Source: Bdellovibrio sp. 22V (GTDB taxonomy: Bacteria; Bdellovibrionota; Bdellovibrionia; Bdellovibrionales; Bdellovibrionaceae). From it: a DNA stretch of 64,000 bases. The DNA lies in assembly GCF_030169785.1 (NCBI RefSeq), contig NZ_CP125854.1, forward strand, positions 1,364,001 through 1,428,000, given 5' to 3'. Below are positions 47,950 to 63,503 of the stretch, piece by piece (the first letter of the stretch is position 1; the number at the start of each line of letters is the position of its first letter). Position numbers and translations under genes: made by a program. Under the pieces are notes generated by a model that was not told the DNA's origin, ran no database searches, and saw nothing but the letters and a program-made list of their open reading frames with translations.

Positions 47950-48368
47950 GGTTCCCCCTTTTTTGGTTTATGTGGACCGCCCTCTTTCCCCTAATTGTTC
48001 GAGTGCGGTTGCGAATGGGGACTATTCCAAAGAAGGTGCCAGCGCGACTTTCATGTCACGGGCAAAAAATTCAAACTCGCAAGATCACAGAAGTAAATGG
48101 GTGTTTGGAACACAGTTCGCGAAGCGAAGGTGACGACAATTGTTTCTCGCCGTCTCAAAAAAGACGCCCTATTTTGTCTCAACACTCTAGGTCAAATTTT
48201 AAGCAAACAAAGAAGAGTGAAGTCATTTTCATCAGATAGAAAGATGTCACCGCATAAGAGACAATTTCAGTCTCTATTACATGTGATTATAGGTGTGCAT
48301 TTCTGTTTGACACTTCCCGTTTCAAACTAGGAATCGTGCAAGTTTTTAAAGAATTTTGAAAAAGTCGC
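47950..48368. other. Leader region without a gene
   Basis: A stretch of about 420 bases between the porin-like gene and the sigma-28-like promoter. It holds no protein-coding frame that I would support; the short frames in it have no good start site. An imperfect hairpin AGAGAC-GTCTCT at 48257-48275 and a TTGACA hexamer at 48307-48312 without a matching -10 are the only notable points. Confidence 0.5.
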
Positions 48369-48395
48369 TCAACTCTCCAAAGGTCCAGCCGATAA
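48369..48395 (+). promoter_or_regulatory. Sigma-28 (FliA)-like promoter
   Basis: The perfect -10 octamer GCCGATAA at 48388-48395 lies 11 bases after TCAACTCT (48369-48376), which matches five of eight positions of the FliA -35 consensus TAAAGTTT at the correct spacing. Transcription would start near 48402, a few bases before the ribosome-binding site of the small frame at 48426. Confidence 0.6.
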
Positions 48396-48425
48396 GCTTA
48401 CTACCTTGAATGAAAGGAGCCTTGA

Positions 48426-48515
48426 ATGGCGAAATCAAATGTAGCACGTCACGAATTGATACTTTCTCAGGAGATTCGTGAATTGACTCTACACCCGGAG
48501 ACGGGGCCACCTTAA
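48426..48515 (+). CDS. Possible 29-residue protein behind a FliA-like promoter
   Basis: A 29-codon open frame from ATG to TAA, below the usual length cut-off. The start follows GAAAGGAG with a 6-base spacer, and the sequence reads MAKSNVARHELILSQEIREL and then TLHPETGPP. A strong sigma-28-like promoter lies about 30 bases upstream and a perfect terminator 30 bases downstream, so promoter, RBS, frame and terminator form a compact unit of about 180 bases. The peptide is mixed polar with two Glu-rich turns, likely cytosolic. I do not recognise it; it could instead be the leader of a small RNA. Confidence 0.5.
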   Translation: MAKSNVARHELILSQEIRELTLHPETGPP

Positions 48516-48544
48516 CCCTTCTAATTTAAATATTGGTGATTAAT

Positions 48545-48577
48545 AAAAACCAGAACTGCAAGGAGTTCTGGTTTTTT
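48545..48577 (+). terminator. Intrinsic terminator after the possible small gene
   Basis: A stem of about 13 bp (48545-48557 and 48564-48576) with the sequence AAAAACCAGAAC / GTTCTGGTTTTT, loop GCAAGG, followed by TTCTTTTT. Confidence 0.92.
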
Positions 48578-48627
48578 CTTTTTCCGGGCTTCGTCCCGAG
48601 CCCTGGAGTCGGTTTCTTCGAACGAGG

Positions 48628-48778
48628 GTTGGGGTTGGAAGAGGCTTAGTCCTAGTAGCAGCTGCGGTCGCACGCCATCCGGGCTCAATCGCCGCCGCAC
48701 TTCGTGCGGTTCGCGCCATCGTGGCGCCGGCAAAGGCGACCTTCGTGCTCCCATGCCTAAGCCTCTTCCAACCCCAAC
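48628..48778. ncRNA. Long inverted repeat with a structured interior
   Basis: Perfect 22-base arms (48628-48649 and 48757-48778; starting GTTGGGGTTGGAAGAGGC and its complement) enclose 107 bases. AACGA / TCGTT extends the stem with a small bulge. Inside, GGTCGC pairs with GCGACC, and CCGCAC-TTC-GTGCGG, GCGCCA-TCG-TGGCGC and GCAGCTGC form further stems. The layout suggests a large multibranched RNA or a short palindromic element. No coding frame is supported. It follows a terminator, so it needs its own promoter if transcribed. Confidence 0.55.
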
Positions 48779-48882
48779 TCGTTAAGATCCCAAATCCACT
48801 CTTCGATCGAATCCGTATAAAGATAAAAACAGAATCTGGCTGGATTTTATTAAGGCAAATTTGTCGCGGGAAGGAAAAGAGG

Positions 48883-49047
48883 AAAAGGTGCCTGGTTCTT
48901 TTTTCTGGCGAGGGTGCAGCAAAGACGCCTGAGGTTCTGTTGTTTATGAGAGTTCGAAATAAAAAAAGAGCGCATGGGATTCATGCGCTCTTTTGCTTTG
49001 CTTCTTTTTTCTGCGCTGTAGCCAGAAAAAAGAAGCAGGCACCTTTT
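48883..49047. repeat. Inverted-repeat unit of the dispersed palindrome family, copies E1/E2
   Basis: A 27-base arm at 48883-48909 (AAAAGGTGCCTGGTTC and on) is the near-perfect complement of 49021-49047 (26 of 27). The arms hold the GGTGCC / GGCACC core. The 111 bases between carry a perfect 13-bp stem with A/T ends (48964-48976 and 48982-48994), a bidirectional terminator. The right arm runs into the stop codon of the gene at 49046. Confidence 0.85.
48964..48994. terminator. Bidirectional terminator inside the inverted-repeat unit
   Basis: Perfect 13-bp stem AAAAGAGCGCATG / CATGCGCTCTTTT (48964-48976 and 48982-48994), loop GGATT, with A-rich and T-rich flanks. Confidence 0.9.
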
Positions 49048-62690: not shown

Positions 62691-63503
62691 ATGCAAAAAC
62701 ATCTGAGTCACAGCTTTCTATTTTTCTGTTCAATTCTCTTTTTTTCTCTCGTATCACGCGCGCAACTTGAAGTTCCTCCCGAGCTGGAATGGAAGACTCT
62801 CAAGACGCCTCACTTCGAAATCATTTTTAATGCCAAGCAGCAGGACCTTGGTCTCCTTTACGCTGAAAAATTAGAGAAAGCCTACTCCGAGCTGCGAGCT
62901 TACTTTCACTCACTTCCAGAAAAGACAGTCGTTATTATAAACGACAAAACCGACATCACAAACGGGTATGCCACACGAATCCCATATCCGCACATTATGG
63001 CTTACCCGGTTTTGCCGGGACCTGAAGAGAGTCTCGCAGATACAGGCGATTGGGCGTTTGAACTTCTAGCGCACGAATACACTCATATTCTCAATTTTGA
63101 ACCGGCGAACGGAGTGATGAAGCCTTTGCGTTCCATTTTTGGAAACATCATCGCACCGAATATTCTTTTGCCACAATGGTGGAAAGAAGGGCTTGCGGTC
63201 GAAATGGAGACGCGTCTGAGCCGGCATGGGCGGCTGCGCTCTTATTTTCAAGATGCGACGATTCGCGCGATGGTCGATGAACAAACCTTCCTTAGCTACG
63301 ACATCGCCCAAGCCAACGAAGTGATACCCACATGGCCTGAAGGAGCGCGCTCTTATCTTTTTGGTTCACTGATCTGGAGTCAGCTCCTCTCCGATAAAGG
63401 ACCTAAGCTTGTGGGAGATCTGAATGAACGCCAGGGCGGTCGTGGGTGCCAGGTCCTGTTTCTTGACGCGTTCGAACAAGAAACAGGACCTGGCACCTTT
63501 TAA
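62691..63503 (+). pseudogene. Zinc metallopeptidase of the MA clan, cut short at a palindrome
   Basis: A 270-residue exported protein: a signal peptide (about 1-24), then a gluzincin core with HEYTH (128-132), and the third ligand Glu166 in QWWKEGLAVEME. Bdellovibrio relatives of this layout are much longer (a peptidase domain followed by a TolB-like propeller). Here residues about 252 onward are encoded by the palindrome arm (GGTGCCAGGTCC...), and the frame ends just after it with TAA. So the propeller part is missing. It is probably a remnant; a short functional protein cannot be excluded. It converges on ppdK with 3 bases between. Confidence 0.72.
63445..63497. repeat. Long-armed palindrome, copy F
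   Basis: Perfect 21-base arms (63445-63465 and 63477-63497) starting GGTGCCAGGTCC, with 11 bases between (ACGCGTTCGAA). It lies inside the 3' part of the truncated peptidase gene. Its right end runs CCTTTTAAG, where TAA becomes the stop codon. Confidence 0.95.

What the first reader, a model, noticed from the sequence alone, without database searches (positions are those of the whole stretch)
48628..48778. 150-base stem-loop with 22-bp arms and a branched interior
The arms are identical over 22 bases and the 107-base interior has at least three further stems. Such order is unlikely by chance and no gene explains it. It may be a structured RNA, or a mobile palindromic unit like the neighbour at 48883.
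Basis: seen in the sequence. Interest (0 to 1): 0.6.

Follow-up and report, generated by a model that had tools for sequence, protein, structure and literature searches.

The report
Bdellovibrio hairpin family with rewritten stems
The hairpin is one of a family of about 3 to 30 copies per genome in predatory Bdellovibrio bacteria, usually just behind a gene, in which the tip stays the same while the long stem is private to each copy yet almost perfectly paired, apparently kept so at the level of DNA.

Summary
In detail: 48628-48778 folds as described (z -7.95). It is not a lone hairpin but one of 11 copies in this genome, and 22 of 24 Bdellovibrio-genus genomes carry the family (3-30 matches each). 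Outside the genus it turned up in one genome of another genus, out of 344 searched. Each copy has a conserved ~95-nt branched tip, a long stem whose sequence is private to the copy, and in many copies a short conserved foot. Private arms pair with their own partner (108 of 114 copies above the 99th percentile of mismatched partners). Tip pairs covary strongly (25 of 28 pairs), but changes are almost all Watson-Crick to Watson-Crick with few G-U pairs, unlike SRP RNA of the same genomes. One ortholog has its tip inverted in place. Copies usually follow a gene in sense orientation (43 of 51 sites); neighbouring copies always converge (18 of 18). Published RNA-seq of strain HD100 probably covers one copy as a 3' UTR. 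Best reading: a lineage-specific interspersed palindromic element whose stem is kept paired by DNA template switching, sitting in mRNA 3' regions. Function is inferred, not shown.

The parts
48628..48649 (+). left private arm of the long stem (perfect 22 bp)
   Evidence: occurs nowhere else in the genome within 3 mismatches except as its own right arm
48757..48778 (+). right private arm of the long stem
48657..48749 (+). conserved branched tip (model R1 match, 90.6 bits)
   Evidence: G000:C1:1412657-1412749; covariation
48617..48627 (+). left foot (TTCGAACGAGG), weak version of the conserved foot GCTTCGAGCG(ACG/GGG)GATTTG seen in many copies
   Evidence: in this copy the match is loose
48779..48786 (+). 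right foot (TCGTTAAG), weak version of CAAATC(TGT/TTT)GCT
   Evidence: loose in this copy
48426..48515 (+). upstream neighbour: conserved 29-codon ORF (MAKSNVARHELILSQEIRELTLHPETGPP)
48548..48577 (+). terminator-like hairpin with T run behind the 29-codon ORF; the element starts about 50 nt beyond
   Evidence: seen in sequence; conserved in relatives

Best explanation
A lineage-specific interspersed palindromic element of Bdellovibrionaceae. Anatomy: conserved foot, copy-private long stem, conserved branched tip. It sits mostly in the 3' region of genes in sense orientation and is probably transcribed there as part of the 3' UTR. The stem stays Watson-Crick perfect while its sequence changes because DNA replication copies one arm onto the other by template switching (or an equivalent conversion between the arms); the same process occasionally inverts the tip. 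Shown: family, anatomy, covariation, placement, arm turnover at fixed sites, one inversion, excess of two-sided Watson-Crick changes. Inferred: template switching as the cause, and a REP/BIME-like passive role of the hairpin at mRNA 3' ends (a block to 3' exonucleases or readthrough).
For: 11 copies in the own genome, 22 of 24 genus genomes, 23 of 368 in the phylum. Own arms pair, cross arms do not (perfect run median 20 against 5 in cross pairs). At orthologous sites, flanks and tip are kept while arms are either the same or rewritten but again self-complementary. One locus (L118 against L134) has the left arm unchanged and only the right arm altered. The tip of the G002 copy is inverted in place in G023, with flanks collinear. 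Tip: 25 of 28 pairs with two-sided changes, 0 of 500 shuffles. Two-sided WC changes 189 against one-sided G-U 12 in the tip; SRP RNA of the same genomes 1 against 22. Variable stem: 2365 WC, 22 G-U, 56 A-C. Upstream gene in sense at 43 of 51 sites, p 7e-7, median 18 nt. 18 of 18 neighbouring pairs convergent. APsRNA6 of HD100 covers a copy. Template switching homogenises arms, inverts spacers and yields compensatory changes (abstracts of PMC8794818 and PMC8604942).
Against: Arms are not generally faster than flanks: median identity of arms and flanks is alike over 34 ortholog pairs, with 12 of 34 pairs at or below 0.80, so turnover is episodic and its cause is not seen. Over the wider helix including the feet, G-U exceeds A-C (198 to 138), which an RNA-level constraint on the foot would give. 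The SRP control is less diverged, and cells are not independent events. No RNA data were read beyond one published table. Only one inversion was found. Template switching explains pairing but not where new sequence comes from.
Confidence: 0.55

Rival explanations
1. A structured RNA family (3'-UTR element or small RNA) whose helices are kept by selection on the RNA; the private stem merely has to pair with itself.
For: Strong tip covariation; sense placement behind stop codons; HD100 APsRNA6 covers a copy; foot with G-U pairs, ACG/TGT and GGG/TTT variants (11 copies).
Against: G-U pairs are 1.3% of standard pairs in the tip against 12% in SRP RNA; in the variable stem A-C (56) exceeds G-U (22); one-sided changes in orthologs are 16 G-U and 16 A-C; no Rfam family.
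Confidence: 0.25
2. A DNA hairpin recognised as single strand by a recombinase or transposase (as REP/RAYT or attC sites are), i.e. a non-autonomous mobile element; Watson-Crick perfection is needed because the folded DNA is the substrate.
For: Dispersed copies with near-identical tips and few shared arms; Watson-Crick-only changes; convergent pairs; a few copies at unrelated sites share arms (3 pairs).
Against: Y1_Tnp (PF01797) does not track the element: absent in G007, G012, G016 which carry it, present in G003, G004 which lack it. Many sites are shared between species, so movement is rare. No target duplication or cassette seen; the G002 empty case also lacks the next gene.
Confidence: 0.3
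3. An oversized transcription terminator or mRNA 3'-end protector selected for itself.
For: Median 18 nt from stop codon to the arm region; convergent pairs.
Against: No U run follows the stem. Separate terminators often lie next to it. APsRNA6 runs past the copy. Broken copies are tolerated (L109, L111, L114).
Confidence: 0.2
4. Each insertion makes its arms by inverted duplication of the target.
For: Arms unrelated between most copies; single left arm in L114 and single right arm in L111.
Against: Conserved foot outside the private arm in many copies; arms rewritten at fixed sites long after insertion; L114 and L111 are as well explained by decay.
Confidence: 0.07

Closest known systems
REP / BIME (repetitive extragenic palindromes)
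   Same: Interspersed, palindromic, between or behind genes, neighbouring units in opposite orientation (abstract and passages of PMC3733652)
   Different: REPs are 20-40 bp with conserved stem and GTAG or CGTC tag; here about 150-200 nt, stem private to the copy, branched tip conserved; no tracking with Y1 transposase
ERIC-type long intergenic palindromes (recalled)
   Same: About 127 bp, imperfect palindrome, intergenic, transcribed
   Different: ERIC arms are conserved in sequence; here the arms are the variable part (recalled comparison, no ERIC search made)
integron attC sites (recalled)
   Same: Palindrome read by structure more than by sequence, conserved foot
   Different: In attC the tip varies; here the tip is conserved. 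No integron cassette order was looked for
Template-switch hairpins (PMC8794818, abstract read)
   Same: Perfect stems with multibase compensatory change
   Different: That work concerns RNA genes and reconstructed histories; here a dispersed family shows the pattern at many loci of one genus

Membership tests
REP/BIME | 20-40 bp unit with conserved palindromic stem | tested here: not met
   about 150 nt; stem sequence unrelated between most copies
REP/BIME | GTAG or CGTC tag at the foot | not tested
   No tag scan was run; a foot consensus GCTTCGAGCG..GATTTG was seen instead
REP/BIME | association with a RAYT (Y1_Tnp) | tested here: not met
   presence does not track copies in 5 of 24 genomes
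REP/BIME | extragenic, neighbouring units in opposite orientation | tested here: met
   18 of 18 neighbouring pairs convergent; between genes
Rfam families (4227) | gathering score | tested here: not met
   window: only a tRNA; five loci at E up to 5: nothing over the element at threshold
Intrinsic terminator | U run directly after the stem | tested here: not met
   base fractions behind the stem, T at most 0.47 at any position, 103 copies
Structured RNA gene | covariation of pairs | tested here: met
Structured RNA gene | G-U tolerated in place of A-U/G-C | tested here: not met
   1.3% against 12% in SRP; opposite trend over the wider helix
Structured RNA gene | expression | tested here: inconclusive
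   one published transcript probably covers one copy; genome identity by recalled length

The most novel reading that the evidence does not exclude
A new class of nucleic-acid element in which an invariant tip is carried on a private, repeatedly rewritten but always self-complementary stem: nearly every copy in a genome has its own stem, so that each hairpin folds only with itself. The rewriting is an active or tolerated template-switch process on DNA, and the folded single strand (DNA or nascent RNA) is the functional form, read by a host protein through tip and foot.
Probability: 0.25. Interest if true: 0.85.

Novelty: new variant of a known kind. Interest (0 to 1): 0.62.

Why it matters
How long stems keep perfect pairing while their sequence changes is an open question; template switching has been proposed. 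This family gives many replicated loci in cultivable relatives (orthologs with same tip, same flanks, rewritten arms; one inverted tip; one half-changed stem) on which the proposal can be tested directly, with SRP RNA of the same genomes as contrast. It is also a so far unnamed repeat family, as far as my searches of the held library go, in a model predatory bacterium, next to strongly expressed attack-phase transcripts.

Tried and rejected
Rfam search of the window at gathering score and of five loci with a loose threshold: no family. Phage collection by blastn and viral contigs by an exact 26-base pattern: nothing. Genome collection by the same pattern: two Bdellovibrio MAG contigs only. Y1 transposase as mover: not supported by presence/absence. 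Origin of the window copy's arm elsewhere in its genome: none within 3 mismatches, only its own two arms; the arms of the other 10 copies were not searched. Inverted target duplication at insertion: disfavoured because of the conserved foot and rewriting at fixed sites. Simple fast drift of arms: rejected because arms of most ortholog pairs are as alike as flanks and a minority strongly changed. Literature searches for a named repeat in Bdellovibrio: none found; the searches led nowhere. The neighbour repeat GGTGCC(T/A)GG was looked for at Y1 loci: present in 2 of 20.

Full report
1. The observation. It is the second of 11 inverted repeats listed in the window. A stricter scan (perfect arms of 18 or more, loop 60-170) finds only this place in the window and one place, at a site of this family, in 166 kb of relatives.

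2. It is a family. BLAST of 48600-48800 against the own genome gave the same core at six other places; the arms mostly did not match. Seven cores aligned gave covariance model R1. R1 finds 11 copies in the own genome and matches in 22 of 24 genomes of the genus (3-30 matches), 0 of 15 outside. In the phylum search 23 of 368 genomes match, the extra one (G178) from another genus of the family (stricter filters); its four copies show the same tip, a similar foot and stems of their own. Two G genomes have contigs of the same lengths as named Bdellovibrio MAG contigs, so I take the genus as Bdellovibrio. G003 and G004 have none.

3. Anatomy. Folding copies one by one gives a three-part plan. (a) Tip: about 95 nt, with conserved strings such as CACGCC.TCCGGGCTC and GGTTCGCGCC. 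On 45 sequences 94.4% of cells pair, 25 of 28 pairs have a two-sided change, 192 such cells, 0 of 500 shuffles, and sliding the partner by 1-3 columns gives at most 52%. The alignment was fitted to the model, which leans towards it. (b) Private stem: in 114 of 115 matches (one dropped at a contig edge) left and right pair with a median score of 27.3 against 7.8 for partners taken from other copies; 108 of 114 exceed the 99th percentile of such cross pairs. Longest perfect run: median 20, maximum 34; cross pairs 5 (105 distinct copies). (c) Foot: in the G000/G018/G001 group a conserved left string GCTTCGAGCG(ACG or GGG)GATTTG and right string CAAATC(TGT or TTT)GCT. A loose left-foot pattern was found in 54 of 105 distinct copies, 19-36 nt from the tip in 51 of these; a strict two-sided pattern in 11 of 114 copies, 9 of them ACG with TGT. 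The window copy has only a loose version.

4. Arms are private and get rewritten. Within a genome, cores are up to 94% alike while arms are mostly no more alike than chance plus foot. Of all copy pairs, 32 have alike arms; 29 of these have related flanks and 3 do not. Orthologous sites are the best view. Strains G018 and G001 (about 94% alike) share most sites, as do G002, G006 and G023. At many sites everything is conserved; at others flanks and tip are conserved and both arms are different but again complementary (site 1 in four genomes, site 2; L087/L088 against L091). In 34 ortholog pairs, arms are at or below 0.80 identity in 12; the medians of arms and flanks do not differ much. Pairs with changed arms tend to have a more changed tip too, so replacement of the whole unit by conversion is possible. 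So change is episodic, not uniformly fast. One locus shows the left arm unchanged and the right arm altered in one strain (L118 against L134). Decay is seen too: internal deletion (L109), one arm left (L111, L114), element missing together with the neighbouring gene (L107).

5. DNA or RNA? In the variable stem of 103 copies there are 2365 Watson-Crick pairs, 22 G-U, 56 A-C and 115 others. Single isolated mismatches: 7 G-U, 16 A-C, 26 others, 4 gaps. In ortholog pairs, one-sided changes are 16 G-U, 16 A-C and 42 others, two-sided Watson-Crick 46. In the tip two-sided changes outnumber one-sided G-U changes 189 to 12, with 15 G-U pairs in 1166 standard pairs; SRP RNA of the same genus (20 distinct sequences) has 1 to 22 and 79 G-U in 653. 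RNA-level selection tolerates G-U and rejects A-C, so this pattern points to the DNA level. Against that, when the helix is extended into the feet, G-U exceeds A-C (198 to 138). One orthologous copy has its tip inverted between collinear flanks (L031 against L115). Arm homogenisation plus spacer inversion is what template switching between inverted repeats does (abstract of PMC8604942), and it has been proposed to create and maintain RNA hairpins with multibase compensatory change (abstract of PMC8794818). I therefore favour template switching, as inference. It does not explain where the new arm sequence comes from; the window copy's arm has no other match in its genome within 3 mismatches.

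6. Place and expression. Using long ORFs as genes, one representative of each of 52 site clusters: the upstream gene points towards the element at 43 of 51 sites (p 7e-7), the downstream gene is convergent at 35 of 51 (p 0.011), and the median distance from stop codon to the arm region is 18 nt, 23 of 43 within 30 nt. Other copies lie directly behind a terminator-like T run. All 18 neighbouring copies closer than 1.5 kb converge, among 160 copies typed in from partly truncated lists, several of the pairs being orthologs. No U run follows the stem. G006 has the length I recall for B. bacteriovorus HD100 (3,782,950). On that identification, Table 2 of Karunker et al. 2013 (PMC3627812, passages read) lists APsRNA6 at 1,338,787-1,339,441 (+) with a FliA promoter, which covers the copy at 1,339,150-1,339,244 (+). 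The same stretch holds an ORF of about 90 codons ending just before the element, so APsRNA6 may be an mRNA with the element in its 3' UTR, and the transcript runs beyond it.

7. What it works like. Placement and paired orientation are those of REP/BIME (PMC3733652), but size, private stem and conserved tip differ and Y1_Tnp presence does not track it. I file it as a new variant of interspersed palindromic repeats, not as a REP. A passive role at mRNA 3' ends is the simplest function and is untested here.

8. Limits.

Noticed in passing
48426-48515 (+): Conserved 27-30 codon ORF (VRHEYIW.KEIREL...ETGPP) with ribosome site AAAGGAGCC and an upstream GCCGATAA (sigma-28-like -10, recalled). Its HD100 counterpart lies within APsRNA5 (605,441-605,617, 388,842 RPKM in attack phase), described as a non-coding RNA in PMC3627812; it may encode a peptide. 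Found by pattern in 8 of 24 loci and by eye in further ones.
   Followed up: partly
L093:1173-1442 (G006): APsRNA6 of HD100 appears to contain an ORF of about 90 codons (MNTELGAFALRQVLASTAVLGPILILIG...), so it may be an mRNA.
   Followed up: partly
48883-49047, 63445-63497; L175: A second palindrome type, GGTGCCTGG... / GGTGCCAGG... (GGTACCAGG in L175, where one of our elements lies inside its loop).
   Followed up: partly
L049, L050, L051 against window 48311-48583: The short conserved ORF is inverted relative to its neighbours in the three closest relatives.
   Followed up: no
L084, L097: One element copy sits directly beside the SRP RNA gene, divergent from it, in G002 and G006.
   Followed up: no
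arms of all copies: The 5' arm is rich in G and T, the 3' arm in C and A; unexplained.
   Followed up: no
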